Part shown: one piece after another, positions 15,499 to 31,825 of the stretch | How positions within the stretch are numbered: position 1 is the stretch's first letter | Layout: every line of letters begins with the position of its first letter | Made by a program: the position numbers and the translations under genes | The notes under the pieces: model-generated | What the model was told of the DNA's origin: nothing | Seen by the model: only the letters and a program-made list of their open reading frames with translations | Database searches by the model: none | Source of the DNA: a virus | Length of the DNA stretch: 33,124 nt | IMG/VR virus record: IMGVR_UViG_3300009365_003806 | Span: 1 to 33,124 of that record | Direction: 5' to 3' (one strand)

Positions 15499-15570
15499 AG
15501 ATTCGCTCCAGGGTTATGGCATTCTCCACTCGTGGCCTGATTGAGTGAAACTAGGCATCTTCTCGCTGGG

Positions 15571-16068
15571 CTAGTCCCTTTGTAGACCTTCGATCATCAT
15601 CCACCAAAATGCACGGAAGCGCCTGTCTCCCATGAAGTAGGCGTTTCGAGGGAACACTCGAGCTCTTACCTGTCGAGATAGTCTCTCGGCGAAATCATCA
15701 TCCTCAAGATTGACTCGTGGGCTTACGATGTAATCCCCTTCGTCGATCTCGATCGCTATCTCACACAGGTATGCTTCTCGGGGAGAGTCGATGATATCTG
15801 AAAACTCGACGCCAAGCATTTCCGCGAAGTGCAGGTGAGGAGTGGTGCTAGAATCGAAGGGAGGTCCATGTCCGCATGTGGGATCTAGCTTCCGTGTGTC
15901 ATGCATTCTGAACCCGTCCGCTCGCTTGTTCTCGCGATAAAGGTTGAGTCCCAGCTGATCCTCGAAGGAGCTAACGAGATCTTCTAGGCTCCTCCTCAGT
16001 ACAACGCTGAATGGCTCAGGCCGAACGAATGGTGGCGGCTGCCTCAGCAAGTCACGCAAGTCTCCCAT
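15571..16068 (-). CDS. hypothetical protein
   Basis: Protein of 165 aa beginning MGDLRDLLRQPPPFV. It appears as a compact alpha/beta protein with an acidic segment (IAIEIDEGDYIVSP, LEDDDFAERL) and a C-terminus FRAFWWMMIEGLQRD. No family is recognised. The ATG at 16068 follows GGGAGGA closely and is preferred to a TTG at 16083. A promoter-like sequence with a central palindrome lies 70 bp upstream. It forms a likely two-gene unit with the 196-aa gene, separate from the terminase operon. A toxin-antitoxin or other two-part system is possible but nothing in the sequence proves it. Confidence 0.68.
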   Translation of the reverse strand: MGDLRDLLRQPPPFVRPEPFSVVLRRSLEDLVSSFEDQLGLNLYRENKRADGFRMHDTRKLDPTCGHGPPFDSSTTPHLHFAEMLGVEFSDIIDSPREAYLCEIAIEIDEGDYIVSPRVNLEDDDFAERLSRQVRARVFPRNAYFMGDRRFRAFWWMMIEGLQRD

Positions 16069-16134
16069 GGTTCCTCCCGTCAATCAGAGGTTGGATCGAA
16101 CCTCGTCTGCTAATCGACATCATAACAAAAACAG

Positions 16135-16163
16135 ATGCTATCATGCGCGCATGTACAAGACAA
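16135..16163 (-). promoter_or_regulatory. promoter-like sequence with palindrome in the spacer
   Basis: On the minus strand, TTGTCT (16163-16158) and TAGCAT (16140-16135) are separated by 17 bases. The perfect 12-bp palindrome CATGCGCGCATG (16142-16153) lies in this spacer, where a repressor would block RNA polymerase. A small hairpin (GAGGTT/AACCTC, 16088-16105) follows in the leader of the 165-aa gene. The promoter match is moderate. Confidence 0.35.
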
Positions 16164-16324
16164 GTGAGTCTGTAATGGCGCTGCGCAGGGGCCCAGTCGT
16201 AGGAGTATGTGAGCAGTTGGGATCCAGGGAGGAAGAGCGGAAAAAAGCGGGGCAGGTGGATACACTGCCTCAAAGCAAGTGCCCGTGACCACTGGCTTTT
16301 CAGGGCGGGTGTATACGGAATGCC

Positions 16325-18169
16325 TTACCACTCACGCCAGGAGTTCACCCATCCCACACGCATTCGAGGCTTGCTAGTCGGCGGCTTCTTTAGTCCACCT
16401 TCTTCGCCGGCGAGCTTCGTCGCACGGTCTTGAAGTGATCCTACGAATTTCGGGCCTAGGATGTAGAGAGCCGCAAGGCAGTAGACCTCTAGATCAAGGG
16501 CCTCATTGCGCGCTCGAGTCTTGATCCACTCGCGTACCGTGCCCTTGTTCTTCACCCACTTCCGAACTGCTTTCTCTGCCGTCAACTGGGCGACGTACTC
16601 GTCATCGATCCAGTCTGGCAGGTGGCAATACCCCGGACCTGGTGTGCCGATTTGCAGCCGCGAGTAGACAATCTCCTTGGCGGTGTCCACGCACAGGGTG
16701 AATAGCTTGGCTCGGTATCGATTGTTTGTCGTAGGCCGGGCCACGACAGGTTTGCCCTTTTCCGACCCTCCACGTACGGCAAACACCCATCGTCGTAGCC
16801 GAGCCCTGCAGAACCGATAGACTTGCTCTGAGTGATGGCCTCCGCTATCGATTGCCACGCATGAAATGTGGACTTTCTTTCCACTCTCGTGGGTGAACTT
16901 CTGCAGCAGGAACTCGTCGAGCTCATGCCACACCTTGTCCCTTCCGGGATCTCCATGAAACTGAGAGAAGGCGATCAGCCAGGACTCCTCCTTCGCGCCA
17001 TAGCCTTTGACCGCGCACTCCAACCGGTCCCCCTGGACGTCGACTGAAGCCACAAGGACGCCCACGCCGTTGGGGACCTCAGCCGGATAGCGCTCCGCCC
17101 TGGCGAGCAGGCTTCCAGGTTCCACCGAATCGCCGCGTTCCTCCCAGCTCTCTCCTAGGACGCTGTTGACCCAGTTCTTGAGGCGCATCGGATTCTCTTT
17201 CGCCTCGAGGAACTCCGATACAGTGGCCGACCAGGGTAGCCAGCCCAGAGGGGAGTAGAGGCTCGAGAGGTGGAAGCCAATGGTCTCACCATTGCCCTTG
17301 GCCGTGGGGCGCCATTCGCCCTGGGCTAGCATCTGGACCTTATAGCGCTCCTCGATCAGAGCCTCGCACTGGACGCAAGCGAGCTGGGCCGTCTTCGGAT
17401 CGTCATTCTCCCAGCGAATATTCTCCCAGCGGATCCAATCATAGTGGCCACAATGTGGGCAGGGCACGTAGTAGCGCCGCTGGTCCGACAGGAGAAACTC
17501 CCGTTCGATCCGGGAAATGCCCTTGATCGTCGGCGTCGAGACGAGGAAGATCTTCCGGCGGGCAAAGCTGGGGCCGCTGGTCCTTTTTTCAGCCAGAGCG
17601 ATAGGGTCTCCTTGGCCGTCCACATCGCCCGGGTACTCGTCAATCTCGTCGCAGAAGAGCCATCGGATGGGCATCGACTTGACACCCGTGGCGGAGTTGG
17701 AGCCCGTCAGGAAGAGCACCCCTCCAGGGAACTCCTTGATCAGGAGACTGTTGCCCCCATCCCGCGCTCTAGCCTCCTTTACCAGCGCTTGCAGGACAGG
17801 TGTCGTCGAGATCATGGGATCGAGCCGCTGGCGGCTGAAGCGCCGGGCCTCGTCGACCGTGGGCCGGAGCACGAGGATTGGCCCTGGCGCGTGATGCATG
17901 ACATAACCGAGCCAATTGTTTCCGGCCTCGGTGCCCCCGAGCTGGGAACCCTTGATGAAGACCACACGCCGCGCCGGCGAGCGAGGGCCCAGGGCGTCCA
18001 TGATCTCGCGCAGGTAGGGGGTCGTTGCAGTCCGCCAGTGCAGGGCTGCCTGGCCCGAGCGGTTGCCCATGATTCGGTGTTCATCGGCCCACTCACTTAC
18101 CGATAAATCAGGCTCAGGACGCCAGCCGTCGCGATAGGCGGTCTCGTAGACCTCATGCCCCATCAGCAT
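16325..18169 (-). CDS. phage terminase large subunit (GpA family)
   Basis: DNA-packaging motor of 614 aa, homologous in type to lambda GpA (PF05876). ATPase domain: KGSQLGGTEAG (Walker A-like, 73-83), LFCDEIDEYPGDVDGQG (Walker B, Asp174-Glu175) and FLVSTPT (coupling). A zinc finger follows (CPHC and CVQC). Nuclease domain: VASVDVQGDRLE, VAIDSGGHHSEQVY and NEALDLEVYCLAALY supply the acidic metal residues. The ATG at 18169, with GGAG 7 bases before it, overlaps the small subunit gene by 17 bp; a TTG at 18208 is an alternative. Unlike a normal prophage, no portal gene follows. Confidence 0.93.
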   Translation of the reverse strand: MLMGHEVYETAYRDGWRPEPDLSVSEWADEHRIMGNRSGQAALHWRTATTPYLREIMDALGPRSPARRVVFIKGSQLGGTEAGNNWLGYVMHHAPGPILVLRPTVDEARRFSRQRLDPMISTTPVLQALVKEARARDGGNSLLIKEFPGGVLFLTGSNSATGVKSMPIRWLFCDEIDEYPGDVDGQGDPIALAEKRTSGPSFARRKIFLVSTPTIKGISRIEREFLLSDQRRYYVPCPHCGHYDWIRWENIRWENDDPKTAQLACVQCEALIEERYKVQMLAQGEWRPTAKGNGETIGFHLSSLYSPLGWLPWSATVSEFLEAKENPMRLKNWVNSVLGESWEERGDSVEPGSLLARAERYPAEVPNGVGVLVASVDVQGDRLECAVKGYGAKEESWLIAFSQFHGDPGRDKVWHELDEFLLQKFTHESGKKVHISCVAIDSGGHHSEQVYRFCRARLRRWVFAVRGGSEKGKPVVARPTTNNRYRAKLFTLCVDTAKEIVYSRLQIGTPGPGYCHLPDWIDDEYVAQLTAEKAVRKWVKNKGTVREWIKTRARNEALDLEVYCLAALYILGPKFVGSLQDRATKLAGEEGGLKKPPTSKPRMRVGWVNSWREW

Positions 18170-18701
18170 CGGCGATCTCCATGCAGATTCGTTCGACTTC
18201 TTCGGCAAGTATCTTGTGGACTTCAGTTGGGTCCTGGGTTGCGGCCAAAGCTGTCGCGAGCCGGTCTGGTAGGGCGGTCAACTGATCCCTCGCTTTTCTG
18301 GCCAATCCGAAGGCCGCGAGCCGGACCTCGTCAGCCCGTACCAGCTCTCCTCGCTTGCGATCGAGCTCAAGCTTGACCAGCTGAGCCTGGTAGACCTCGC
18401 GGGCCGCTCTGGCCTTGGCGTAGCCTGATGCTGTCCCACCGTCACTGGCCGGATCCTCCGGGAGCGCCATGGGTTCGGTCGGTGCTCCGGGCGTCCGGGT
18501 GCGTTTGGGCTGACCGGTGATACGGTTCCGTGGCTTACTCTGGTCAGTGTTCTCCTGCCACTCACGATCGGCCTGGACGGGATCGATCTTGCCGTCCACG
18601 GTCGAGATTCGCCCCGACTTGATGGCGCGTTGAACGGCAGTGTGTGAGATGCCTCGCCGGCGGGCGTACTCGCGCTGCGAGATGAGTCCGCTCGCTGCCA
18701 C
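18153..18701 (-). CDS. phage terminase small subunit (Nu1-like)
   Basis: Protein of 182 aa that recognises phage DNA for packaging. An N-terminal winged helix/HTH is visible (LISQREYARRRGISHTAVQR, then AIKSGRI, residues 6-32). A linker rich in Pro/Thr is followed by a helical C-terminal part (YAKARAAREVYQAQLVKLE, residues 93-150) that would bind the large subunit. The GTG start lies two bases after the stop codon of the methyltransferase gene, and the 3' end overlaps the large subunit, so the three genes are one operon. Identification rests on domain plan and position. Confidence 0.88.
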   Translation of the reverse strand: MAASGLISQREYARRRGISHTAVQRAIKSGRISTVDGKIDPVQADREWQENTDQSKPRNRITGQPKRTRTPGAPTEPMALPEDPASDGGTASGYAKARAAREVYQAQLVKLELDRKRGELVRADEVRLAAFGLARKARDQLTALPDRLATALAATQDPTEVHKILAEEVERICMEIADADGA

Positions 18702-18703
18702 AC

Positions 18704-20173
18704 CTAGTTTCCTCGCGCAGCTACTCGCTCGGTAGCCACGTCATCGTAGGAGACTCCCGAGGCTTCTAAGGTTGCTTGCTGACCCGTTTCAGTCTGCCAA
18801 CGCTGGATGATGACGTCGCAATAAGCGGGATCGAGCTCAATCAGGAATCCACGCCGGCTAGTTCGCTCGGCGGCGATCAACGTGCTACCACTGCCGCCGA
18901 AGAGGTCGAGCACGTGCTCACCAGGTTTGGACGAGTACTGGATGGCCCTCACGGCCAACTCGACGGGCTTCTCGGTGAGGTGGACCATGCTCTGGGGATT
19001 GACCTTCTTCACTGACCAGACATCGACCGCGTTGCTCGGGCCGTAGAACTTGTGGGCAGCGCCTTCTTTCCAGCCGTAGAAGCACCACTCATGGTTGCCC
19101 ATGAAGTCCTTCCGGGTCAGGACCGGGTGCTCCTTGACCCAGATGACAGCCTGGCTGAAGTAGAGCCCATTGGACTTGAGGACGGGAGGGTAGTTGGCGC
19201 AGTTGGCGTAGCCGCCCCAGATGTAGAAGGCCCGTCCCGGCTCCAACACACGGGCCAGATTCCCGAACCAGGACTGCAGGAGTTCGTCGAAGGCCTCGGG
19301 AGTGACGAAGTCATTGGCCAAGGGACGGTCCTTGGGGCGCATCTTCCCTGCAGCCCGAGCCTTGCCTTTGCGGCGGGCAGTAGTGCGCCCTCGGGCGGGC
19401 GTCTCTTGGTCATCGGTGGCTTCGCTGGTTCCCTGGGTTGCCGGGAAGCTCGACAAGCCCGCCGCGATGGCGTTGTTGGAGCGAGGCTCGACCTTGACGT
19501 TGTAGGGCGGGTCCGTGTTGACGAGATGGATGGTGGCCCCGCTCAGCAAGCGGTCCACGGCGCCTGGGTTCCCCGAATCGTCACAGAGCAGACGGTGGTC
19601 GCCCAGGATCCAGAGGTCACCGGCCTGGCTGACGGGATCCTCGGGTGGTTCAGGGGCCTGTGCCTCCTCGGTAGTCTCCTCCTCGATGAGCGATCCCAGC
19701 TCGTCCAAATCGAAACCCGTCAGCTCCAGGTTGAAGTCCAGGTCGTCCAGGGCCTGCATTTCCTCGGCAAGCAGCTCCTCGTCCCAGCCTGCATCGAGAG
19801 CCAGGCGGTTGTCTGCGATCACGTAGGCACGCTTCTGCGCCTCGGTCAGGTGGGAGAGCTCGATCGCAGGGACGAAGGATATCCCGAGCTCCCTGGCTGC
19901 CAAGAGACGCCCGTGGCCGGCGATGATGCCCAAATCGCTGTCGACTAGGATGGGATTGGTCCAGCCGTACTCCAGCAGACTCGCTGCTATCTTCCTGATT
20001 TGCTCGGGGGTATGGGTACGGGGATTTCGCTCGTAGGGCTTGAGCTGGTCAATGGGCCAGTAGCCCAGCTCACTCGGTAGCTTCACAGTGGGTACAGACA
20101 TATCATCACTAGCCTGAGCGGATGAGCTATCGATTCCCTTGGCACGGGTGGAACGGTCGGCAACTTGTTTCAT
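18704..20173 (-). CDS. ParB-domain DNA methyltransferase
   Basis: Fusion of 489 aa. A ParB/Srx-like domain spans about residues 38-125 (LKPYERNPRTHTPEQIRKIA, then DLGIIAGHGRLLAAREL). A beta-type amino-methyltransferase follows: catalytic NTDPPYNVK (221-224), a long basic insert at about 235-285, then HLTEKPVEL and the SAM-binding DLFGGSGSTLIA (about 436-447). It would methylate adenine N6 or cytosine N4. Genes of this type often stand just before terminase genes in phages, where methylation protects DNA or marks packaging sites. GGGAGAAG precedes the ATG. It heads the packaging operon. Confidence 0.92.
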   Translation of the reverse strand: MKQVADRSTRAKGIDSSSAQASDDMSVPTVKLPSELGYWPIDQLKPYERNPRTHTPEQIRKIAASLLEYGWTNPILVDSDLGIIAGHGRLLAARELGISFVPAIELSHLTEAQKRAYVIADNRLALDAGWDEELLAEEMQALDDLDFNLELTGFDLDELGSLIEEETTEEAQAPEPPEDPVSQAGDLWILGDHRLLCDDSGNPGAVDRLLSGATIHLVNTDPPYNVKVEPRSNNAIAAGLSSFPATQGTSEATDDQETPARGRTTARRKGKARAAGKMRPKDRPLANDFVTPEAFDELLQSWFGNLARVLEPGRAFYIWGGYANCANYPPVLKSNGLYFSQAVIWVKEHPVLTRKDFMGNHEWCFYGWKEGAAHKFYGPSNAVDVWSVKKVNPQSMVHLTEKPVELAVRAIQYSSKPGEHVLDLFGGSGSTLIAAERTSRRGFLIELDPAYCDVIIQRWQTETGQQATLEASGVSYDDVATERVAARGN

Positions 20174-20682
20174 GCTTCTCCCACTATCGAAAACCGGCGC
20201 GCCGCGTCACCCGCTGTGAATCGCCACAGGAGGACCCGTGGAAGTCCTGGGTTGAATTCGTCATGTACTTAGGGCACGATTTGGATGCAACAAGCCATCG
20301 TCCCATGTGTTTACATACTCTTTGAGGACTCGAAGCGTCGGCTTTGATTTGCATTTGATGGTTTTTTGGGCAGCTTGGACTGTAGTGAAGCCCCAATATG
20401 AAGACTTAGGCGACCCTCCAGTTGATCTTTACTGTCGTGGCAAGGCGTGGCCGGCTAACGGTTCGCCGATGGCGGGCTATCAACACGCATGAGCTATCCC
20501 GGGGTTGACCAACCCCCTTTGCGGGTTTCCCTTACACGCCAACCGGGCAATAGACGTTGCGGCGCTGCTTTAGGAGGGCGTCCTGATAACAGAGTTATCG
20601 TCGTGAAAGCAGGTGTTTCAGGATGCTGATGGCTCAAATCTGAGACCTTCGGACTAAAGAGGGAATAGCAATTGGGGCTGAG
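20174..20682. other. 509-bp divergent intergenic region
   Basis: No convincing gene. It separates the packaging operon (minus) from the 143-aa gene (plus), so it should hold promoters for both, but I see no clear -35/-10 pair. It contains a strong palindrome (20501-20516) and a GATAAC/GTTATC hairpin with a 3-base loop (20585-20599). A minus-strand reading frame at 20494-20895 crosses the real gene and is judged spurious. Confidence 0.5.
20501..20516. repeat. palindrome GGGGTTGACCAACCCC
   Basis: Seven-base arms, GGGGTTG and CAACCCC, around two bases. A further AACCC...GGGTT pairing overlaps it (20511-20527), so a small cluster of hairpins can form. It may be an operator, or part of a dispersed repeat of the host genome. 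Only one copy was seen in the window. Confidence 0.45.
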
Positions 20683-21114
20683 ATGAATGTGAAGTGGATG
20701 ACGAATGAGGTAGATCCTAGAGACTTCGAGCTTCAATGCCCGGTCTGCGGTGCTAGTGTTGTTCCTTCCCCTCAGATGTACTGCAGCCATGTTGTGTTCG
20801 TGTACCTCGAACCGTCTATAGATGACCCGGGTTTTGATTTCGTCGTACAGACTTTTGCCAGCAAGTATCTTGATGCTCTGGTGCGTGCGATTCAAATGGG
20901 GGAGATAGAAGATTCCCTGAGCTTAGAGTCCCAAGTCGAGTTTCTTCAGGCAGAGCTTCCTTCGTTTAACAGACAGGGAGTCAAGCTATACCGGAAAATA
21001 GTATCTGACAGCATGTTTGTTTCGAGTAATCCAACAGTCTACGAAACACAAGTTTTAAACCTGCGCGATCCTACACGGGTAATTGTTGCATTTGAAACTG
21101 CAGAAAATGAATGA
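20683..21114 (+). CDS. small protein with zinc-ribbon-like start
   Basis: Protein of 143 aa with the N-terminal pattern CPVCGASVVPSPQMYCSH (residues 19-36), which suggests a zinc-binding knuckle. The rest reads as a mixed alpha/beta domain and is acidic. GGGG lies 6 bases before the ATG. It is a lone plus-strand gene that converges on the HKD gene, with a 63-bp gap containing no obvious terminator. No family is recognised and no function is proposed. Confidence 0.7.
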   Translation: MNVKWMTNEVDPRDFELQCPVCGASVVPSPQMYCSHVVFVYLEPSIDDPGFDFVVQTFASKYLDALVRAIQMGEIEDSLSLESQVEFLQAELPSFNRQGVKLYRKIVSDSMFVSSNPTVYETQVLNLRDPTRVIVAFETAENE

Positions 21115-21177
21115 GGTCACTCGGGAGCTATCGAGATCTGGAGCTTTGCTAAGTAGGCAGGTTCCTCAAACTGAAGA

Positions 21178-23805
21178 TTAAACCCCATAGGCTCTACCGA
21201 CATCGGAGATAAGGCTGTGTAGCTCGGACCGCACAGCATCTGAGAGTTGGTCGCTATAGGCATCAACGAGTGGACCAAGGGGGACGAGGAAGCTGGAGAC
21301 GAACTGTCGTCTGGACTCGTCACCTTGTAGCTTGCGTACGGAGATCTTGTCCTTTGGACGATCCGTGCTGGCGGGCTGTTCACACACACACCACCCCGCA
21401 CTTCCCTGCCAAGTGATTGTCCCAGGCTCAACCTTCCATGCTTTTAGGCGGCTCCGAAGGGCTTGAGTAGGGCTGTCACCAACCACCTTCTCAAAGGCTG
21501 CAATGGCCGCCCCGCGCCTTTGAACTTGAACCCACCATGTATCGAGCATGGCCACTTCACCCTCGTACTGGGTGTGTTGAATCAGTTGGCGAAGTTCCTT
21601 GCCTATGCGCTCCAGAGATGCACCCCGCCATACCCATGGGTGATGCGCCGCTGACACGGCACAGGTGAGGTCGAAACACACGAGGTCTTGCCCATCACCT
21701 TCCTGGTGTGCAGCCAGGCCCCAAGCCGCCAGGGCTGCAGCAAGCCGAGGTGTAGCTAGAGCCTCCCTAAAGGCATCGGGGTTGGTTTCTAGCTCCAAGC
21801 GGGTAGTAAGCTCTCCTCGCACATCGTCTGAGTGACCGCTGAAGAACATGGCTCGCCATGCCTTCTGACTAGTCGTGAAGAAGTCCTGGCCCCTCATCCA
21901 ACCTTGCTGGCGACCCACCCGAAGCAGAAGCGCTAGCATAATGATGGCTCGTCGTATGTCTGCGGGACTCCTCTCGCCGATGAACTCCGGGTCAGATAGC
22001 AGGTCGAGCATCTGTTGCAGAACAGCCAGTGCACGCTTCTGGCATCTCGCAGACTTGCCTGATGTGATGCCCTGTTGAGGCGGCGGAGGAGGTGGTGGGG
22101 GATCCAACTCGCCCTCATCTTCCGCAAGGCCATTTGAGTCCAGATCACTCGGATCATCCTCATCGTTCCAGGCATCTAGGCGATCGACTCCATCTTCGCC
22201 ACGACTCCATTCGATGAGGAGAGAGAGGGTCGAGCTAACGACATCATCTTCTGCTTTCGCGGCCGAACCGATTGAGGAGTGGGGCAAAAAAAAGGACGAG
22301 AGAAACACATCCTCTTCGTGCCAGGTCTTCGGGGCTGAATCATCAAGTTGCTTTGGCGGGGATCCCCCTCCTCCTTGCGAGGTTGGGATCGCAATCTCCT
22401 CGAAGGCGGCATCCACTAAATCAGCCCAAACCTCAATGGTCCAATGGGCTTTCTGCTGGTTTTGGTAGACAAGGTCGATGAGGCGACGACGCGCAGCGGA
22501 GCCTCGTAGGAGGGCCTCGACATCAACCCAAAACTCGGGTGTAGACCATTCCTTATCGTGCAAGAGTCCAAGCACTCGAACCCGGCTCGGGGGAGATTCG
22601 AGGTGGGCGAGGAGTTCGCCACTCTCTTGGACGTGTGTCGGGACCACTGTACCGTCCACTTCAATGTACCTTGCATCAAAGTCGGCGTGTGCGCTAACGG
22701 CGACAAGTAGCGTGCCCATGTCATAGCGTGCGGCAAGTACAACAGGATCGCGATGCTTGGCCTCCTCATCCTCGTTGTCTTCTGGCGCTTCAGGGATCTC
22801 GAGTGATCTTTTGTGCACTTCAAGTTCGGCCAGAAGGGACTCGGTCAGGTTGTTGGCGTCGCCTTCGATGACGGCTACTAGCTCCGCGTTTCCAGCAGTC
22901 CCTGAGACCGTCAGCGCCGCTCTTGAGCAGTTCGCGCTTCCTACGATTGCAGTGCCTCGATCTCCCCTGGTGGCAAGTATCCACTTCGCATGCAACCGTG
23001 CCCGTTTTCGCTCCCCTTCTTCATCGGTGTGGAAGTAATCCGCGGGTCGTGCTTGAACGAAAGCAGGCCAAACGGCTAGGGCCGCAGGTAAGAGGTTCGT
23101 CGATGACTCCTGTGTAAGGACCTCGACTTGAGCAGCACCGGTCTCTTCAATGAGTCTTAGGAGAGCCTTACCCTCAGCATCGAAGTATGGGCTGCACACG
23201 GTCATCGCTGAGCCATGGATGCGCCCATGCAGCCGCGTGAGTAGCGACTCCCCTTCGCCTAGACGTCCAACGAGGTGGGCAGGCTCGGGCAATGGGTTGG
23301 CCCATCCACGGCTGGTAGGGTCAAACATAGCTGCTATCTCTCCGCGCAGTGTGTCTGCGAGAGGTAGGCGATCAAGAAGTGCATCTACATAGGCCTTGAA
23401 GGCCGCGATAGCACCACCCTCTCCGTCTGAAGTCTGGAATCGGGCCCAGATCTCGCCATTCTCACACCAGCCTCCGAAAGTGAGATTGCCGCTACCTACA
23501 AACAGAGTCGCACCGTCTGGAGACGCTAGGAAGATGGCCTTGGGGTGGAAACGTCCTCCTGAAGCTAGTGCTACCGGGACAAGTCGATAGCGCTCACCAA
23601 GGCCGACGATGTAGTCAGATTGCTGGGCAAAGGACGAGGCGGCACGCTCGGCATCTGCAAATACTGTCAAGGCGGGATTCCCAGCAGCCTTCAGCGCGCG
23701 CAAGACAAGGTGTTGCGTGAAGATGAAGTCAATGTCGTGGGTTAAGACTAAGGCATGTGTGATGCCCTGCAGCTCCTCAATCTCGTGTAGGACGCTGCTT
23801 CTCAT
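21178..23805 (-). CDS. double-HKD phospholipase D-like protein
   Basis: Protein of 875 aa with two HKD motifs of the PLD nuclease superfamily. The first is FHPKAIFLASPDGATLFVGS (His87, Lys89) continuing GSGN (104-107). The second is LHAKWILATRGDRGTAIVGS (His272, Lys274) continuing GSAN (289-292). Both motifs in one chain form one active site for phosphodiester cleavage. A middle region of about 300 residues and a linker with eight prolines (about 574-581) lead to a helical C-terminal domain of about 290 residues that I do not recognise. The ATG overlaps the stop of the upstream gene (ATGA), so the two work together. Likely a nuclease of a defence system; an ordinary lipid phospholipase is unlikely in this setting. 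Confidence 0.85.
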   Translation of the reverse strand: MRSSVLHEIEELQGITHALVLTHDIDFIFTQHLVLRALKAAGNPALTVFADAERAASSFAQQSDYIVGLGERYRLVPVALASGGRFHPKAIFLASPDGATLFVGSGNLTFGGWCENGEIWARFQTSDGEGGAIAAFKAYVDALLDRLPLADTLRGEIAAMFDPTSRGWANPLPEPAHLVGRLGEGESLLTRLHGRIHGSAMTVCSPYFDAEGKALLRLIEETGAAQVEVLTQESSTNLLPAALAVWPAFVQARPADYFHTDEEGERKRARLHAKWILATRGDRGTAIVGSANCSRAALTVSGTAGNAELVAVIEGDANNLTESLLAELEVHKRSLEIPEAPEDNEDEEAKHRDPVVLAARYDMGTLLVAVSAHADFDARYIEVDGTVVPTHVQESGELLAHLESPPSRVRVLGLLHDKEWSTPEFWVDVEALLRGSAARRRLIDLVYQNQQKAHWTIEVWADLVDAAFEEIAIPTSQGGGGSPPKQLDDSAPKTWHEEDVFLSSFFLPHSSIGSAAKAEDDVVSSTLSLLIEWSRGEDGVDRLDAWNDEDDPSDLDSNGLAEDEGELDPPPPPPPPQQGITSGKSARCQKRALAVLQQMLDLLSDPEFIGERSPADIRRAIIMLALLLRVGRQQGWMRGQDFFTTSQKAWRAMFFSGHSDDVRGELTTRLELETNPDAFREALATPRLAAALAAWGLAAHQEGDGQDLVCFDLTCAVSAAHHPWVWRGASLERIGKELRQLIQHTQYEGEVAMLDTWWVQVQRRGAAIAAFEKVVGDSPTQALRSRLKAWKVEPGTITWQGSAGWCVCEQPASTDRPKDKISVRKLQGDESRRQFVSSFLVPLGPLVDAYSDQLSDAVRSELHSLISDVGRAYGV

Positions 23806-25328
23806 GTAAACACCCCGTGAGCCCAGTCAATTCCAGTCCTGGTCGGCTGGAAGCCTCCTTGGGTCGAGCGGAGGTGCCCAATGTCCGCCATCACCTGGAG
23901 CACTGACGCTAGCCTTGTCAGGGAAAAGCCAGCTTTCGTCTTGGTTCCCGTTGGTACTAGGGAGTCTCCGCGGGGAAAGAAGCGAAGCGAGTTTGCCTGC
24001 CGTTGGGACATTTTCCGCATGGTGTGACGCAGATGCCTCGCTGCAACTACCGAGTGCATCAGTCTAGCTGTCAACTCAGCAGCAGAGCCATCAGCCTTCT
24101 CCAATAGGGCGAATGTGTCCTCCATCGCCTGATGATCGCGGACCTTTACGACTCCCGACTGTCGTAGCTGGCAAGACTGGTGTTCAATCGCCGCGAGGAG
24201 TGATAGCGCCGCCACCAATTGCCAAGCAGCGGGTAGGCCGGCAAGGTCACGTTTGGGTGGTGTCTGAAGGAATGCATCGGGACGAACACGATCCTGGAAG
24301 GTTGCCCAGGGTTCGGATAGGTCGATCGGCTGATCGTCGATCTCAGCCTCAATGGCCTTAGGGGGGCGCTGCCCCTGCAGATCCCTTGCGAGGTTGGTGA
24401 TCACCTCAGGAACCCCTGTCCCTCGGTTTGGCTCAAGGGAGTTGGTTAGAGCTGCAAGTAGCAGCTCAAGAGCGAAGTGTACTCTTTTGCGGAGCGCAAC
24501 CTCGCCCCATAGCAGACCGATATCTCGCTTCACTTGGTTCGATACAAGGTCAGCGTATGCAAGGTCGACCAATCCATCCGCGTCGGTACTCTGCCTCTGA
24601 AGCTGGTCGATTACCCAAGCGCGTGTCGCACTGAAACGACCCACTCGGCTGCTACTGGTCGCTTCCGCGGGTTCATCTAGGGCCTCAAGTAGAGCATGCT
24701 GCTCTTTAGGAGTGGACCGAAGTCGGTTTAGCGACAGATGCGGGCGTAGGCTGTCGAGCTGTTCGGATGCTAGGCCTTCCCCTGAAAACAACAGCTCCTC
24801 AGTGCTGGGGGGGATAGCCATGTATTGCACTAGGGCCTGGCCCCTTGGGGTCAGTGCAAGAGGGCCGCTCTCTTGAACCTGCTTGAGGAGCCCAAAGGCT
24901 TGAATGGGGGAGCTGTAGGCGTTGAGTACACCAGGGCGTCTTGACGGCGGGAAGTGTGCAGATCCGGAAGAGGCCAGGGAGTCGAGTTCAGTGCGGTAGA
25001 CATCACCACCTATGATGCCGGTGAAGCTTCCCTCTTCTTGGTCAAGCTCATCTGCTTGTGTGGCGGCTGCGATTAGAAACTCTAGCCGTGAGAGCAGCGC
25101 ATTCTGCTCATCGTCGTCTAAATGAAGGATGCCATCGCCTTCGCTGAGGAGCCGTTTGTACAGGACTGTCAGAGCCCACGTTACAAGAGTGATGTACCGT
25201 GCGCGTGGCGCAACCGTCGTAAGCCCGCCAACCAGCTGGACCTCTAGATTCTGGTCGAGCTGACGAACTCCGAGGATATCAAGCCCGGCGATAGTCTCTC
25301 GATATCGATCATTCCAGCTTAGCTTCAT
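23802..25328 (-). CDS. partner protein of the HKD nuclease, unknown
   Basis: Protein of 508 aa beginning MKLSWNDRYRETIAGLDILG. An early motif, LTTVAPRARYITLVTWALT, resembles the RARYxSxxxW motif I associate with some uncharacterised proteins near restriction and defence genes. Most of the chain is helical and the end has a winged-helix look (LASVLQVMADIGHLRSTQGG, FQPTRTGIDWAHG). The ATG at 25328 is preferred to a GTG at 25364, which has no ribosome binding site. The 4-bp overlap with the HKD gene indicates a two-gene operon. Probably the sensor or DNA-binding half of that system; this is inference. Confidence 0.75.
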   Translation of the reverse strand: MKLSWNDRYRETIAGLDILGVRQLDQNLEVQLVGGLTTVAPRARYITLVTWALTVLYKRLLSEGDGILHLDDDEQNALLSRLEFLIAAATQADELDQEEGSFTGIIGGDVYRTELDSLASSGSAHFPPSRRPGVLNAYSSPIQAFGLLKQVQESGPLALTPRGQALVQYMAIPPSTEELLFSGEGLASEQLDSLRPHLSLNRLRSTPKEQHALLEALDEPAEATSSSRVGRFSATRAWVIDQLQRQSTDADGLVDLAYADLVSNQVKRDIGLLWGEVALRKRVHFALELLLAALTNSLEPNRGTGVPEVITNLARDLQGQRPPKAIEAEIDDQPIDLSEPWATFQDRVRPDAFLQTPPKRDLAGLPAAWQLVAALSLLAAIEHQSCQLRQSGVVKVRDHQAMEDTFALLEKADGSAAELTARLMHSVVAARHLRHTMRKMSQRQANSLRFFPRGDSLVPTGTKTKAGFSLTRLASVLQVMADIGHLRSTQGGFQPTRTGIDWAHGVFT

Positions 25329-25539
25329 TTCACCATTGGATTCCCATGGGGATGGTGGATTCACAGAGTTGGCTAGTCGGATGCAAGCGCTGACTCAGAC
25401 TACCCCGGGAAAGATCTTCAGCTGCTCAATGAGCTCGCCGACCGCGATATCAGGCGTATGCATCCTCCATGACTTGGCTTGTTGTCGATCCCAACATGGA
25501 TCACATGCGGGCAGGATAGCACAAATACAGTGTATCAGA

Positions 25540-26898
25540 TTAGCGCAACTTTGGGAGGGCCGGCTTCCGGACAGACTGTCCAGCTCGAACGCGAGCCCAG
25601 TATCCTCGGGGCGGTACAGGGATCCGAAGCTTTCGACATGCCTTGCCTAGGGCAACGCCTGAGATGCCATACGCCTTCGCGACCTTCTGGACGGGATTCT
25701 TCCACACTTCGGCATAGAGGGTCTCTCGATCGTACCGGTTCATGAGGCGTTCAACCTCGTTTCTTCGGCGCTCTCGCACGCTGATCGGCTTTCGAATGAT
25801 CCCAAGGCTGATCAAGCGCTGTTGCATTCTTGAGGTCCGAGTCAGTTCCGCGAAAGTATCGGGATCGCAAACTGCCGGTTTCTTCAGGTGAGAGAAAATG
25901 CGCCGGATATCATAGTCATCGAACTTGAGTAAGGAGCGTCTTATCCCGGCAAGCCTCTCTGCATCAGCCTCTGCCCACTGGACTCCACTCTCTAGGATTG
26001 TCTCTGCGCCCCAACTTGGCCCTCGACCTGGCCAGGGCATGAAATGCCATGAATAGATGGAGGTTAGGTCAAGTGGGGGTTGCATCGAGAGGAGGTAGTG
26101 AACAACCGAGCCCGAGCTTGCATAGCGATACAGGTTGTCAAAATTGTCCTGATCTGGGTCTGGATGAAGACGTTTTAGGATGCCAAGGTTGCCTGTCTTC
26201 GCCGCTTCCTCCATTGCCGTCCATCCGCTTTGCTCATCATCTTCAAGGTCATCTTCCTCGGGGAAGCCGAAGCGTGGATCGGGCGCGTAGGTGTGTGGAT
26301 TGGCACCGGCCCAGAGGCAGAGGCTGACTCCTTTCTCGTTCTCTTCGCGAACATGGCAGCCAAGGGCGATGTTAAGCTCGCCCTGGATCTTGGGCTCCCC
26401 AGGACTATGACGCTTCACAAAGCCGAGAAGCGGCCGATTCGACGGGGTCTCGCCGAGGTACATGCCCAGGGTGTGGTATTCAGTGAAGTCACATCCTGCT
26501 AGCCAGAAGCGCTCATAGAGCTCTGAGTTGTACGTGTTTAGTACCGTAAAGGTGTCCGCACTCCTGACGTCCGCCCCCCACGCGATCAGTAGGTCAACTA
26601 GATCCCACCGCCTTAAGCCGAGTGCGGAATCCAACGGGGTTGACGAGTCTTTGGCTATCGAGTAGCCGCTCGATAGCAGGAGATAAGTGAGAGAGTGCTG
26701 CCCGCTTTGAACTGCTATTTGTAGGGCGGATCTAAGTCTCTTCTCTCTCTGGATGGCGTTTGGGGCTAGCTGGAGAGGGTTGCCTTGAGATATCCATCGC
26801 TCCACGTCATACAACCGTCCCTCAGAGCACATCGCAAGCAATGGGCGAAGGTCATCTTGCGATTGGGCGAGCGTGCAATCTGGCACAATGGACCTCAA
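25540..26898 (-). CDS. ankyrin-like protein with C-terminal HTH
   Basis: Protein of 452 aa. The N-terminal half has ankyrin-like repeats (LRSALQIAVQSGQHSLTYLL, LDSALGLRRWDLVDLLIAWG, GWTAMEEAAKTGNLGILKRL). The last 60 residues carry RETLYAEVWKNPVQKVAKAY and GISGVALGKACRKLRIPVPP followed by RGYWARV. This is a DNA-binding-like motif found at the ends of several uncharacterised bacterial proteins. Protein-protein contact and DNA binding are thus combined in one chain. The start is uncertain (TTG 26898 or GTG 26886), with GGAG close to the TTG. It is encoded upstream of the HKD pair but 211 bp apart, so co-transcription is possible. Confidence 0.78.
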   Translation of the reverse strand: MRSIVPDCTLAQSQDDLRPLLAMCSEGRLYDVERWISQGNPLQLAPNAIQREKRLRSALQIAVQSGQHSLTYLLLSSGYSIAKDSSTPLDSALGLRRWDLVDLLIAWGADVRSADTFTVLNTYNSELYERFWLAGCDFTEYHTLGMYLGETPSNRPLLGFVKRHSPGEPKIQGELNIALGCHVREENEKGVSLCLWAGANPHTYAPDPRFGFPEEDDLEDDEQSGWTAMEEAAKTGNLGILKRLHPDPDQDNFDNLYRYASSGSVVHYLLSMQPPLDLTSIYSWHFMPWPGRGPSWGAETILESGVQWAEADAERLAGIRRSLLKFDDYDIRRIFSHLKKPAVCDPDTFAELTRTSRMQQRLISLGIIRKPISVRERRRNEVERLMNRYDRETLYAEVWKNPVQKVAKAYGISGVALGKACRKLRIPVPPRGYWARVRAGQSVRKPALPKLR

Positions 26899-27396
26899 GG
26901 CTCCACAGGTGTGCTAGCGCACCGATTCTATTCCCATTCCAGGGCTAGGAGGATGCCACGGCCTGGAATCCAGTGCAAACGGATATCCCGCTAGGGGATG
27001 AGTGCAATTGCGTCATAAAGCCATTTGAAGGCGGTGGGCTGGTATGGCCGCCATGTCAGTCCTGGACACATGACGCCGGGTCCCAGGACTTGCTGATAGG
27101 GGGAAAGGGGTGTAGTGTTAGCAATCCTCGCTTCAGAGGGTGTGTGATCGAAAGACATCCAGGGCAGTATTCAGGCGAAAGAAAGAGCCTGGGGCATGGA
27201 AGCGGTAGATAGTACAGCTGCTTTCATTTCCGCTAAGGCGACTGAAATCTATGTAGTTGGATGCGGGTTGCCAATGCTTCCATCAGCCGACATAGGGTGC
27301 GAGGTTAAGCTCTCTGCCATCCTTTACCATGGCTGAATTCGCCAATGTCCGATAGCGAATACTGTAGTGGAATCACGATGAGCTAGGAGCACCAAG
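26899..27396. other. 498-bp divergent region with a hairpin cluster
   Basis: No supported gene; a 79-codon frame (26973-27212) has poor coding character. Three inverted repeats lie close together: ATTCCAGG/CCTGGAAT (26936-26943 and 26962-26969), ATCCC/GGGAT (26985-26989 and 26995-26999), and AGTCCTGGAC with GTCCCAGGACT (27058-27067 and 27080-27090, one bulge). The region must contain promoters for the methyltransferases and the ankyrin gene. A non-coding RNA is possible. Confidence 0.45.
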
Positions 27397-28317
27397 ATGA
27401 CGCCTAAGAGCAAACCGACCGTTGTAGAGGAGCAAGTAGCGGCAGGGAGCAAGGGGAAAGAGGCAGCCGCAGATGAAGCCCAAGTTCATCCTCGAAACCA
27501 ACTGAATGATTTGACAGCCAAGCGTTGGATTGCTGAAACAGTTTCAGTTTGGCACCAGCAGGGATTAGGGGCGAAACATCCCGATGCTCAGATTGAACGC
27601 CAGCATCCAGCGCCATTTTCATTCACCGATGTTAGCAGATTGATCCGGTTCTTTACCAAGAGCGGAGGTGTTGTACTCGATCCGTTCGTTGGTGTCGGCT
27701 CGACTCTGAAAGCATGTGCGCTTGATGGGCGGAAGGGAATCGGCATCGAGCTTAACCCGCGATTCGCGGATCTATCGCGTGAGCGGCTGGCAAAGGAAGT
27801 AAAGGACCTCTTTGCCAGCTCGGAGGAGCAAGAGGTTCTAGTTGGGGATGCCAGGGATCATGTGAAACGAATCCCAGATGCGAGCGTCGATTTCGTCGTA
27901 ACAAGCCCCCCGTACTGGTCCATTCTCAAAAAGAAGGACCATAAGGCAAACCAAGAGCGAGTAGCGAACGACCTAACCACGGATTATGGGGAAGATTCGC
28001 GAGATCTCGGAGTCATTGAGGAGTACCCAGCGTTCCTATCTGAGCTTAGCGACATCCTCGAAGATTGCGCGAGGACTCTGAAGCCTGGAAAGTATATGAA
28101 TCTCATCGTTAGTGACTTTAGGCATAAGTCGCGGTATGTGATGTTCCATTCCGACCTGGCTCAGGCAATGGAAGAGCGCGGCCTAGAGATGAAGGGCCTC
28201 AAGGTTCTCTACCAGAGGCACAAGAAGGTTTACCCTTATGGCTACCCCTACTCTTATGTCCCGAACATCCATAACCAGTTCATCCTCATCCTCCAGAAAC
28301 CGAAAGAAAAGAAGTGA
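27397..28317 (+). CDS. DNA methyltransferase 1 (motif I before SPPY)
   Basis: Protein of 306 aa that transfers a methyl group from SAM to an amino group in DNA. The SAM motif LDPFVGVGSTLKAC (94-107) comes before the catalytic TSPPYWSI (169-176), with IGIELNPRF as motif II. This order differs from that of the next gene. The SPPY form is common in cytosine-N4 enzymes and also occurs in adenine-N6 enzymes, so the base is not decided. A family-like N-terminus (QLNDLTAKRWIAETVSVW) follows a lysine/alanine-rich extension. AGGAG lies 8 bases before the ATG. It overlaps the second methyltransferase by 4 bp (GTGA). Probably the protective part of the neighbouring nuclease system. Confidence 0.9.
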   Translation: MTPKSKPTVVEEQVAAGSKGKEAAADEAQVHPRNQLNDLTAKRWIAETVSVWHQQGLGAKHPDAQIERQHPAPFSFTDVSRLIRFFTKSGGVVLDPFVGVGSTLKACALDGRKGIGIELNPRFADLSRERLAKEVKDLFASSEEQEVLVGDARDHVKRIPDASVDFVVTSPPYWSILKKKDHKANQERVANDLTTDYGEDSRDLGVIEEYPAFLSELSDILEDCARTLKPGKYMNLIVSDFRHKSRYVMFHSDLAQAMEERGLEMKGLKVLYQRHKKVYPYGYPYSYVPNIHNQFILILQKPKEKK

Positions 28318-29123
28318 AGTCGCAGATCATCCTAGGAGATTGCGTCGCGGGGATGCAGGCCCTGGAAAGCAATTCTATCAATCTCATCGTGGCAGACCCC
28401 CCCTATAACCTGGACAAAGACTTTGGGGCATGGAAGGAGTCTGAGCGCCGAGATAGCTGGCGCGAATGGATGAATGTCTGGCTTACTGAGGCAAAGCGCC
28501 TCTTGTCTAAGCGAGGCAACATCTTCGTGTACGGCATCCACCGCCACCAATGCTGGGTGCAATGCATGATGTATGATCTAGGACTTGAGTATCGTAGGCA
28601 GATTATATGGTATTACGAGAACGGGTTTGCGGGGTATCAGCGCAGCTTGAATGCTTTTTACGAGCCTCTATTGTGGTTTTCCAAGACTGGTGACTACATC
28701 TACCATCCAGTGAGAGAGCCGTACAAGAGCCAAGAAAGGCTTAAACACAAGATCACTAAAAATGGAAAGGTGTGGAAGCCTCATCCGGATGGTCGCATGG
28801 CAGGTGATGTCTGGGCCTTCCCTACATTGGCGGGAAGAAGATTCCGCGATGAAAAGGTCGACCACCCGACACAAAAGCCTCTCTCGATCTCTCGTCGACT
28901 TGTGAAGCACTTCTCCGACCCAGGTGATACGGTGCTTGTGCCCTTCGTCGGAAGTGGTAGCGAGTGCGTTGCGGCTGTCCTGGAAGGTCGAGGCTACCTC
29001 GGGTTTGAGCTTAACTCGGAATACATAGAGATCGCTCACAACCGATTGGACAATGCCATCAAAGAGCGGGCTGAGCAGCTCACTTCAGCGGAGAGTACGC
29101 TCCAGGATAAGGCTCAGCAATAG
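28314..29123 (+). CDS. DNA methyltransferase 2 (DPPY before FVGSGS, beta type)
   Basis: Protein of 269 aa with the beta-class order: catalytic VADPPYNLDKDF (Asp28-Tyr31) first, then DHPTQKPLSI (183-192) and the SAM motif LVPFVGSGSECVAA (208-221). DPPY and the HPTQKP motif favour adenine-N6. GTG start within the stop of methyltransferase 1. The 3' end overlaps the iron-sulfur nuclease gene on the other strand by 44 bp. Two different methyltransferases in tandem are usual where the recognition sequence is asymmetric and each strand needs its own enzyme. The target is unknown. Confidence 0.93.
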   Translation: MKSQIILGDCVAGMQALESNSINLIVADPPYNLDKDFGAWKESERRDSWREWMNVWLTEAKRLLSKRGNIFVYGIHRHQCWVQCMMYDLGLEYRRQIIWYYENGFAGYQRSLNAFYEPLLWFSKTGDYIYHPVREPYKSQERLKHKITKNGKVWKPHPDGRMAGDVWAFPTLAGRRFRDEKVDHPTQKPLSISRRLVKHFSDPGDTVLVPFVGSGSECVAAVLEGRGYLGFELNSEYIEIAHNRLDNAIKERAEQLTSAESTLQDKAQQ

Positions 29124-30123
29124 GATCTAAAGATGGAACCAGGTGCTTCATTGACGCTGAAAGATCTGAGGCGGCCTGTGAAGTCGAAAACAACTCGTCG
29201 CCGAACTCCGTAATTCGGACAAAGTGCATTGCTAGAACAGCTAAGGCGCCTAACGAAACAGTACGGCATCGTAGTCCAAGTACTTGCTCGATATCATCTA
29301 CCACGCTGTAGTACTCTGAGCGTTCATTCGGTAGAGATAGAACGCAGCTTATGGGCAAGATTCCTGGGGCAGGAATGTCGAAGCGATTGTGGAGAACAGC
29401 GACATCCTCCAGCAACGCTCGAGGTGATTCTAGGGAAGTGGCGGCTTTAAGCTCGATCTCAAGCACTCCACTCACTTCTGTAGAAATGCCAATTACACCG
29501 TCCATACGAATATTCGTGTCGCCTGCTCTTCGGATTCGGCAGGGCACACCGCATGCAATGAACAAGCTACGCACTAGTAGTGACTTTGTGCGGTCGTTTA
29601 GCTTTCCGATTGCAGCAGGCAGAGATCTCAAACTCTCCGCATTGGGGGAGGCTATTCTGCCCGTTCGAACTGGATCAGGGTGAGGAGACGTCGTTTGTCT
29701 GCCTATAGAGATGCCGCTTGGATCTGATGTTTCAATAGAAGCAAGTCCGAACTCATTGGCAGACAGCGCACCAAATGGGCAGAGGGCGATGCAGGCTCCA
29801 CAGCCTATGCAGAGATCACGGTCAATATCGATAAAGTCGTGTTCTTCGTTCCAGGAAATCGCCTCTGTTGGGCATACGTGAGTAGAAGGGTCGCCTGGAA
29901 AGCTGGCTAGTGCGTCATGTAGGGTAAAGGCGCTCGGGGGGAGGCGCATGCATGGAGAGTCAAAGCATCCAAGGCACGTTCCTAAACCCGTAGTGCCACA
30001 TTCCAATCGTACTGTGACTGGTGCAGAGCCATCTCCATAGTCGAGAGAGGTCACTGCTGAGAGATAGTCCTTTTTCCTGCCAGCGGGAGCTGTTGCCTTT
30101 TGGTGCGGTATGACTTCAGCCAT
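29080..30123 (-). CDS. ferredoxin domain fused to a PD-(D/E)XK nuclease-like domain
   Basis: Protein of 347 aa. The N-terminal half resembles a two-cluster [4Fe-4S] ferredoxin: CLGCFDSPC (Cys50, 53, 58) with VCPTEAI (Cys84), and CIGCGACIALCPFGAL (Cys105, 108, 111, 115); Cys42 is extra. After a linker (about 135-170) comes a nuclease-like domain with RMDGVIG (Asp208) and VLEIELKAA (Glu224, Lys226). It ends in LPNERSEYYSVVDDIEQVL and LGALAVLAMHF. The same tail occurs in the neighbouring 569-aa protein. The ATG at 30123 overlaps that gene by 8 bp and is preferred to a start at 30174. Clusters might be structural, redox-sensing or regulatory. Nuclease activity is inferred. Confidence 0.85.
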   Translation of the reverse strand: MAEVIPHQKATAPAGRKKDYLSAVTSLDYGDGSAPVTVRLECGTTGLGTCLGCFDSPCMRLPPSAFTLHDALASFPGDPSTHVCPTEAISWNEEHDFIDIDRDLCIGCGACIALCPFGALSANEFGLASIETSDPSGISIGRQTTSPHPDPVRTGRIASPNAESLRSLPAAIGKLNDRTKSLLVRSLFIACGVPCRIRRAGDTNIRMDGVIGISTEVSGVLEIELKAATSLESPRALLEDVAVLHNRFDIPAPGILPISCVLSLPNERSEYYSVVDDIEQVLGLRCRTVSLGALAVLAMHFVRITEFGDELFSTSQAASDLSASMKHLVPSLDPIAEPYPGAYSPLK

Positions 30124-31825
30124 GCAAGAATCCCCGTAGTTGCTTGAGTTGATTGCTTTCAACAGTATCACCACTTGACACAGATTGAATTGCGAGAGCT
30201 GCTAAAGCGCCTAGATCAATGACACCGATGCTAATGCTAAATGCGGAGTGAATATCATCAATCAGCATCGCCATATCTCCCCGCTCATTGGGAGCCTTGA
30301 ACCCGATGATTAGAGTGGAGCTGTTTCTGTCTGTGGGCATCCCACCTCGGGATAGTAGAATTACCTTGTTTTCTAAGGCTTGCCGGATGGCTTTGGTCGA
30401 CAGGTATTCCTCCTCAGTTGGAGACTTTATTTCGATTGGCAATGTAACACCGTCAACGGTGGCGTAGGCATCCCATCGTTGGTAGTTCACGCCTGGGCGT
30501 GATGTTTCGCAGTTGAATCCAAGTAGCCGGATTAGATTGGCGACGAGAGGGTAAAATACTGCCTGGGTATCGTCCTGATGTCTGGCCACGAAGGCCTTGG
30601 CTGCATCCTGCGGGTTGCTCTGCTGGGCAATAAGGATGGTGAGTTCATCCTTCAGCGGGCGTAGGTTTTCATCGTCTGGGGGGACTGGCTGCCGCACAAG
30701 AATAGGCCGAATGATGAGATGATCCCGGGAGTCTCGGCCTGTCACACTACCTGGCCGAACATCTGCCGGGGCAGCTTGCTGGCCAGGGGCCTCTGTTGGG
30801 AAGATTGCACCTATTCTCTCCAAAGATATGGACTGGAAAGGCGAGAATAGGACTAGTGCATCACGAGGTATAGCGAGCCGGTCTTTTGCAGAGCTTAGGG
30901 CCGGTGTGAGGTCCTCTAGTAGGGTCTGAATAGATTCCACTTGGAATCCAGATCGATGGAGCATTGAGAAGTGCGCATGGATCGCCAAAGCTTCTTGCTC
31001 GTCCGCGGGAAGAGATTCAAAATCCTCGACTCGAACATCAGCAGCATCGACTACCAGTTGAGCGAGGCGTTGTCCCTTTTCAGTCAGCTGGTGTACTTCG
31101 AACGAGCCACGCTCGTGGGTGTAATCTCTTCGGACTTTTATGGTCCACCCCATGTCACGCATCGTGCCTATTGGCCACCGGGTGTAGTTCTTGAGAGTGT
31201 TGGGCTGAATCCCACATTCATCGCTAATGCGCTCAAGCCCTTCCTGGACATCGCTCCTGCTGCGCCGCAGCCTGCTCACCAGTTCGCAAAGACGCGGAAT
31301 CGTATCTGCCGGCCTATCCGAGGGAACACTCAGCGGGCCGATGATCATTTCATCGCGCGATAGAGTAAAGTCGCAGGCGAGCATGGTTTTTAGGAGAAGG
31401 GCGAAAGGGCGAATCTGCTGCTCGCTGCGATTGCTTATGATTCGACTGGGGTGAGAAATGCCTAGCATAGTCTCGCTGAATATCCGCGAGTAGTACGGGC
31501 CAGCTTCGACGACCTGGTGGCCTAGCAGTGTGAATGTGTAGTTAAGGGCGCGGCCTTCAATCGGGTGAAGCCAGCCCAGGGTCCTGAACAGCTCAGTGTA
31601 CATTTTGAGCTGGTTAAACAAGGGATCACGGCTTCTGTCTAAGCGCCGCGATCTATCCATGGCTTTAGTGCCCATATGGCCAGATGAAGTTGCCAAATTG
31701 GCTTCAACCGCAGCGAGTACGAAGTCGTCATTGTCAACGACATGGCCGCTGAAACGTTGGAGAGCTGCTGCAAACACTGCAACGAAGGTCGGTATGCTCG
31801 AGCCAGGATTGGGAAATCTCAACAT
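30116..31825 (-). CDS. restriction-endonuclease-like protein with PD-(D/E)XK domain
   Basis: Protein of 569 aa beginning MLRFPNPGSSIPTFVAVFAA. The N-terminal two thirds are helical, with winged-helix-like parts (PLFNQLKMYTELFRTLGWLH; MRDMGWTIKVRRDY), and probably recognise DNA. The C-terminal domain holds YQRWDAYATVDGVTLPIEIK (Asp452, Glu465, Lys467), a PD-(D/E)XK site, then APNERGDMAMLIDDI and IDLGALAALAIQ, matching the tail of the iron-sulfur protein. Start chosen at ATG 31825 with AGAGGA upstream; TTG 31912 and ATG 31891 would add up to 29 residues. It is the first gene of the nuclease operon. Likely the sequence-recognising restriction subunit. Confidence 0.83.
   Translation of the reverse strand: MLRFPNPGSSIPTFVAVFAAALQRFSGHVVDNDDFVLAAVEANLATSSGHMGTKAMDRSRRLDRSRDPLFNQLKMYTELFRTLGWLHPIEGRALNYTFTLLGHQVVEAGPYYSRIFSETMLGISHPSRIISNRSEQQIRPFALLLKTMLACDFTLSRDEMIIGPLSVPSDRPADTIPRLCELVSRLRRSRSDVQEGLERISDECGIQPNTLKNYTRWPIGTMRDMGWTIKVRRDYTHERGSFEVHQLTEKGQRLAQLVVDAADVRVEDFESLPADEQEALAIHAHFSMLHRSGFQVESIQTLLEDLTPALSSAKDRLAIPRDALVLFSPFQSISLERIGAIFPTEAPGQQAAPADVRPGSVTGRDSRDHLIIRPILVRQPVPPDDENLRPLKDELTILIAQQSNPQDAAKAFVARHQDDTQAVFYPLVANLIRLLGFNCETSRPGVNYQRWDAYATVDGVTLPIEIKSPTEEEYLSTKAIRQALENKVILLSRGGMPTDRNSSTLIIGFKAPNERGDMAMLIDDIHSAFSISIGVIDLGALAALAIQSVSSGDTVESNQLKQLRGFLHG

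What the first reader, a model, noticed from the sequence alone, without database searches (positions are those of the whole stretch)
21178..25328. Two-gene candidate defence system: 508-aa protein and double-HKD nuclease
A 4-bp overlap couples a mostly helical protein of unknown family to an 875-aa protein with two complete HKD motifs and a large unrecognised C-terminal domain joined by a polyproline linker. PLD-type nucleases occur in DISARM, in several restriction enzymes (BfiI, NgoFVII) and other systems, but this pairing does not match DISARM, which needs a methyltransferase and helicase genes. It lies in a row of cargo genes next to a restriction-like locus.
Basis: partly seen in the sequence, partly recalled or inferred. 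Interest (0 to 1): 0.62.

Follow-up and report, generated by a model that had tools for sequence, protein, structure and literature searches.

The report
Two-gene phage-borne nuclease defence module
A bacterial virus carries two overlapping genes, a DNA-binding-like helical protein and a PLD-type nuclease, that recur side by side in bacteria of many phyla, often beside restriction systems, and look like an unnamed cousin of the Azaca anti-phage system that works without Azaca's helicase.

Summary
The pair is real. It lies on the minus strand: A (P0001, 508 aa) overlaps B (P0002, 875 aa) by 4 bp (ATGA). It sits in the cargo region of a temperate phage. Profiles built without the window's proteins find A (E 3e-27) and B (E 3e-63). 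The pair recurs as a coupled two-gene module in Pseudomonadota, Bacteroidota, Balneolota, Myxococcota, Acidobacteriota, Gemmatimonadota and Actinomycetota: 73 of 80 genome loci carry both genes side by side. In 337 sampled alphaproteobacterial genomes A and B occur in exactly the same four, adjacent. About a quarter of loci adjoin or interrupt type I restriction operons. B is a two-lobed PLD phosphodiesterase (Tdp1/PLD3 fold). HxK, GSxN and Glu are conserved in both lobes, but the 'D' of HKD is missing in both. A is helical with winged-helix elements and has no clear PDB match.

Closest named system: Azaca. A resembles only the first ~110 residues of ZacA, B only the PLD part of ZacB, and ZacC is absent from 40 of 41 carrier genomes. 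So it is a new variant rather than Azaca, DISARM or PDC-M27. Best model: A senses or binds DNA and restrains or directs nuclease B. Defence and DNA cleavage are inferred, not shown.

The parts
23802..25328 (-). Gene A (P0001, 508 aa): helical, winged-helix-containing partner; putative sensor / DNA-binding subunit
21178..23805 (-). Gene B (P0002, 875 aa): double-lobed PLD-superfamily nuclease with large C-terminal region
23802..23805 (-). ATGA overlap of A stop and B start (translational coupling; overlaps of 4, 8, 11, 14 or 23 bp in most relatives)
24966..25289 (-). A residues 14-121: only part shared with ZacA (GLDxLG ... LVxGxTxVxxRARY motif)
24828..24932 (-). A residues 133-167: helix followed by two short strands and a helix, possible internal winged helix
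23808..23912 (-). A residues 473-507: C-terminal helix-strand-strand-helix, winged-helix-like element
22771..23805 (-). B residues 1-345: two-lobed PLD phosphodiesterase domain (Tdp1/PLD3 fold)
23452..23550 (-). B motif 1: FHPK (86-89) ... GSGN (104-107) ... E118
22882..22995 (-). B motif 2: LHAK (271-274) ... GSAN (289-292) ... N306, E308
22561..22740 (-). B residues 356-415: predicted beta-strand domain after the PLD domain
22078..22101 (-). B residues 569-576: eight prolines inside a predicted disordered linker (541-581)
21181..22062 (-). B residues 582-875: mostly helical C-terminal region with a small strand-rich part (797-836); low model confidence

Best explanation
A two-gene, NTPase-free anti-invader nuclease module carried as cargo by a temperate phage. 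[quoted passage not shown] A is made in step with B, binds it, and through its N-terminal ZacA-like domain and winged helices recognises invading DNA (a structure, an end or a modification), keeping B inactive until then. The phage would gain protection of its host against competing phages. Shown: gene coupling, fold of B's catalytic domain (predicted), invariant catalytic residues, A-B co-occurrence, defence-linked neighbourhoods, relation to ZacA/ZacB. Inferred: A-B complex, DNA as substrate, sensing and restraint by A, anti-phage effect.
For: 73 of 80 genome loci found with A carry B immediately downstream, mostly overlapping by 4-23 bp. A and B occur in exactly the same 4 of 337 alphaproteobacterial genomes, adjacent. 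Catalytic H, S, N and E invariant in both lobes in 51/51 B. B 1-345 matches Tdp1 (Z 24.4, 315 residues) and the PLD3/PLD4 exonucleases, plus SauUSI and NgoAVII restriction nucleases. Type I RM genes lie within six genes in 21 of 86 loci, needing at least 16 changes on the A tree; HsdM-type genes near 18 loci against about 0.6 expected from 78 HsdM_N hits in 226 Mb. In six loci an HsdR gene follows directly at +1; the hsdS-hsdR slot is a documented site for embedded defence pairs (TgvAB, PMC11411939; DarTG2, PMC12255303). Related phages carry SIR2, Schlafen, GmrSD_N, PIN and other defence-type genes around the same parB-MTase/terminase block. All 7 first B match ZacB and all 6 first A match ZacA of Azaca.
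Against: No activity data for any member. About three quarters of loci have no type I RM neighbour. The window pair is very divergent (A end branch 5.2). A's winged-helix matches are weak (Z 8.2 over 78 residues; Z 7.9 to Nt.BspD6I over 207 residues at 5.4 A). B's C-terminal half is poorly modelled. PLD folds also include lipases, Tdp1-type repair enzymes and RNases.
Confidence: 0.62

Rival explanations
1. Nuclease with a helicase or translocase supplied in trans: the pair is an accessory effector that uses a nearby type I HsdR, an SNF2 helicase or a host motor, replacing ZacC of Azaca.
For: HsdR directly downstream at +1 in six loci; SNF2-type genes near 8 loci; ATP-dependent PLD nucleases such as CglI/NgoAVII need their helicase partner to cut DNA (PMC4267653).
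Against: Many loci, including this phage locus, have no motor gene next to the pair; HsdR/SNF2 association is scattered on the tree.
Confidence: 0.2
2. PrrC-like guard: a suicide nuclease held inactive by A (or by the RM complex) and released when a phage inhibits restriction.
For: Position between hsdS and hsdR in some loci, as known for embedded systems (PMC11411939, PMC12255303); a PLD partner of Argonaute is toxic on its own (PMC11442185).
Against: Only a minority of loci are inside type I operons; no type I RM genes were seen in the phage record.
Confidence: 0.1
3. DNA repair or phage DNA-processing enzyme (Tdp1-like removal of protein-DNA adducts) rather than defence.
For: Best structural match of B is Tdp1, which also uses HKN rather than HKD motifs (motif of Tdp1 from general knowledge).
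Against: Patchy distribution of roughly 1% of genomes, mobile and restriction-rich neighbourhoods, kinship with the defence proteins ZacA/ZacB; not found in the phage contigs related to this one by terminase.
Confidence: 0.05

Closest known systems
Azaca (ZacA-ZacB-ZacC)
   Same: Order A then B; B's whole PLD region aligns with ZacB (hhalign probability 98.8); A residues 14-121 share the ZacA N-terminal motif.
   Different: No ZacC in 40 of 41 carrier genomes nor in this record; A lacks the DUF6361 full-length match that true ZacA gives; A is about 500-560 aa against ~400, B mostly 810-955 aa against ~600.
DISARM (DrmC)
   Same: A PLD-type nuclease gene; partial profile match.
   Different: No DrmB-type MZB/DUF1998 protein in the record; DrmC match far below the curated cut-off; no DISARM operon.
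PADLOC candidate PDC-M27
   Same: PDC-M27B profile matches part of the PLD region; 6 of 7 B match it.
   Different: No A matches a PDC-M27 partner profile; ZacB is the better match.
Argonaute-PLD (APAP, AgaP; PMC11442185)
   Same: Two-gene system with a PLD protein; AgaP alone is toxic and thought to be restrained by its partner.
   Different: A is all-helical with no Argonaute match; B has two lobes with intact GSxN.
PLD restriction enzymes (BfiI, NgoAVII, CglI, SauUSI)
   Same: HxK-type PLD nuclease; structural match of B to SauUSI and NgoAVII.
   Different: BfiI and NgoAVII have one PLD domain per chain and form the site by dimerising (PMC4267653), with a recognition domain and, in NgoAVII/CglI, a helicase; here both repeats are in one chain and the partner is A.

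Membership tests
Azaca | ZacB-like PLD protein | tested here: met
   ZacB profile E 3.5e-22 over residues 35-350; 7 of 7 B match; only the PLD region aligns
Azaca | ZacA (DUF6361) protein over its full length | tested here: not met
   0 of 59 A match DUF6361, while true ZacA match over the full length; only the N-terminal ~110 residues resemble ZacA
Azaca | ZacC helicase as third gene | tested here: not met
   absent from the record and from 40 of 41 carrier genomes; in G009 it lies on another contig than the pair
DISARM | DrmC nuclease above the curated cut-off | tested here: not met
   34.4 bits against 133
DISARM | DrmB/DUF1998 (MZB) with helicase and methyltransferase in one operon | tested here: not met
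   no MZB match in the 33-kb record, which may be a fragment; no helicase next to the pair
PDC-M27 | PDC-M27 partner of the PLD protein | tested here: not met
   no A of 55 matches a PDC-M27 profile at E 0.01
PLD superfamily nuclease | two HxK...GSxN half-sites in a PLD fold | tested here: met
   invariant residues, fold match Z 24.4
PLD superfamily nuclease | canonical HxKx4D motif | tested here: not met
   D position is A94 and T279 and variable in the family
Anti-phage defence system | measured protection against phage | not testable with these tools
   needs cloning and plaque assays

The most novel reading that the evidence does not exclude
A widespread, still unnamed two-gene immune system in which a winged-helix protein of a fold not seen in the PDB, without any ATPase or methyltransferase, licenses a two-lobed Tdp1-like PLD nuclease against invading DNA. 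It would be the minimal core from which (or into which) the three-gene Azaca system evolved, and it is traded between phages, plasmids and the hsdS-hsdR slot of type I restriction operons.
Probability: 0.35. Interest if true: 0.7.

Novelty: new variant of a known kind. Interest (0 to 1): 0.5.

Why it matters
If it defends, it gives a two-component version, with no NTPase of its own, of a defence type (Azaca) whose mechanism is listed as unknown (PMC10482375), small enough to purify and test. It would also show what the helicase-free core can do and why phages carry it. A's family has no Pfam entry and its predicted fold has no clear PDB match, so a structure would be new information.

Tried and rejected
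DISARM (cut-off and MZB tests). Full Azaca. PDC-M27. Pfam on 59 A members: nothing consistent. PDB by sequence: A none of note; B only weak hits, SauUSI entry 7clg E 0.0017 and an unrelated chaperonin. Foldseek of A against PDB and viral models: nothing at E 1e-3. VIA-align of A: winged helices and Nt.BspD6I/PaqCI recognition domains only at levels that can arise by common arrangement. Relatives of B in 50,697 phage records: none; of A in plasmids: none by simple tblastn. Idea that the two neighbouring methyltransferases are part of the system: not supported, since relatives have no such constant neighbours. A viral scan with a B alignment failed for lack of conserved stretches; with A it found two more viral contigs that carry the pair. 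Literature searches for DUF6361, PDC-M27 and ZacB gave no description of a two-gene version, but the library lacks most subscription papers. Tree placement of the window's B against ZacB: it falls with two-gene members, but the AU test does not reject joining it to ZacB (p 0.14).

Full report
Observation. The window is a 33,124-base viral record. On its minus strand, gene A (25328..23802, 508 aa) overlaps gene B (23805..21178, 875 aa) by four bases (ATGA). One point is corrected: neither motif is a complete HKD. The motif has H, K, GSxN and a later Glu, but the D five residues after K is A94 and T279, and that column is not conserved as D in the family.

It is a real, old gene pair. PADLOC gave ZacB for B (E 3.5e-22) and a weak ZacA for A (E 0.0017). 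Plasmid tblastn with B found 26 records; of the six whose context I read, five have the intact same arrangement and in Roseomonas the A gene is split. A scan of bacterial and archaeal genomes with an alignment of A gave 80 loci, 73 with B next door, usually overlapping by 4, 8, 11, 14 or 23 bp; in a few of these one of the two reading frames is shortened or cut by the contig end. Profiles built without the window find A over residues 4-502 (E 2.8e-27) and B over 2-650 (E 3e-63); 7000 shuffled sequences stay above E 0.5. In a less biased draw, A occurs in 2 of 321 gammaproteobacterial genomes and 4 of 337 alphaproteobacterial genomes, the group centre counted in each, and B is always adjacent. 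Searching the same 337 with B returns only the same four. Two further viral contigs carry the pair.

Anatomy. B residues 1-345 form a two-lobed PLD domain modelled with high confidence, matching Tdp1 (Z 24.4 over 315 residues) and the exonucleases PLD3/PLD4, and more locally SauUSI and NgoAVII. H87, S105, N107, E118, H272, K274, G289, S290, N292, N306 and E308 are invariant in 51 sequences, K89 in 50. A strand-rich domain (356-415), a disordered proline-rich linker and a poorly modelled helical C-terminal half follow. A is modelled well (pLDDT 86.3, pTM 0.87): helical, with a C-terminal helix-strand-strand-helix and a similar internal element. Foldseek finds nothing in PDB or viral models at E 1e-3, and VIA-align gives only winged-helix-level matches.

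Context. Type I restriction genes lie within six genes of the pair in 21 of 86 loci, requiring at least 16 changes on the A tree, so the association arose repeatedly. HsdM-type genes are near 18 loci; from 78 HsdM_N hits in about 226 Mb of carrier genomes one expects about 0.6. This is an estimate, because the two counts use different detection. In several loci the pair stands just before hsdR or between hsdS and hsdR, a slot already known to hold embedded defence pairs (PMC11411939, PMC12255303). Pfam hits of near neighbours are led by ResIII, SWI2/SNF2, HSDR_N and Methylase_S. In the window, the phage has a serine integrase, recombination and replication genes, and a terminase block. Forty viral contigs share the terminase, and around the parB-MTase/terminase block relatives carry different cargo: SIR2, Schlafen, GmrSD_N, REase-ARP, PIN, DUF4365-TPR. 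The pair is thus one exchangeable cargo item at a place where this phage family keeps defence-type genes.

Relation to Azaca. I fetched four true Azaca loci via ZacC. Their ZacA is DUF6361 over its full length in the three tested; none of 59 A matches DUF6361, and only the N-terminal part aligns. ZacB aligns with B over the PLD region only. Of 41 carrier genomes, 40 have no strong full ZacC match; the 41st (G009) has it on another contig. In a tree of PLD regions, B members including the window are separated from ZacB by a 100/100 branch, though the long window branch cannot be placed firmly (AU p 0.14). So the pair is related to, but fails the definition of, Azaca. DISARM and PDC-M27 also fail.

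Mechanism. Most likely a two-subunit nuclease: A recognises invading DNA and restrains B; B cuts by the PLD two-histidine chemistry without metal or NTP. Predicted fold, invariant residues and coupling are shown; the complex, the substrate, sensing and the anti-phage effect are inferred. The lack of a constant methyltransferase partner in relatives suggests that self is spared by DNA structure or by targeting modified DNA, as in type IV restriction (inference). A helicase used in trans and a guard role for the RM system remain open rivals.

Limits. No wet data; host of the phage unknown; distribution of the family is sampled, not exhaustive; the PADLOC copy is of 2023 and the paper library is incomplete, so a recent name for this pair cannot be excluded. 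The description of Azaca as ZacA-ZacB-ZacC rests on PADLOC's model names, the loci read here and my own knowledge of the original report, which was not in the library.

Noticed in passing
window 27397-31912: Type II restriction-like locus: two N6/N4 methyltransferases (+), a 598-aa protein (30116-31912, -) with a C-terminal PIEIKS nuclease-like motif, and a 364-aa protein (29080-30174, -) with a 4Fe-4S ferredoxin domain plus a VLEIELK stretch whose C-terminus resembles that of its neighbour. An iron-sulphur partner of a restriction enzyme would be unusual.
   Followed up: partly
L098, L102, L107, L111, L116 around parB-MTase/terminase; window 14908-33124: Phages sharing this terminase keep different defence-type genes (SIR2, Schlafen AlbA_2, GmrSD_N, REase-ARP, PIN, phosphorylase-like, DUF4365-TPR) on both sides of the parB-MTase/terS/terL block: a phage cargo hot spot.
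   Followed up: partly
window 25540-26898 (-): 452-aa ankyrin-repeat protein directly upstream of A on the same strand; possibly co-transcribed.
   Followed up: no
window 18704-20173 (-): ParB-methyltransferase fusion next to the terminase, conserved in the related phages.
   Followed up: no
L009 9273-9950 and the matching genes of L010 and L011: A PIN7-domain protein of 226 aa precedes the pair in three Pseudomonas-type loci.
   Followed up: no
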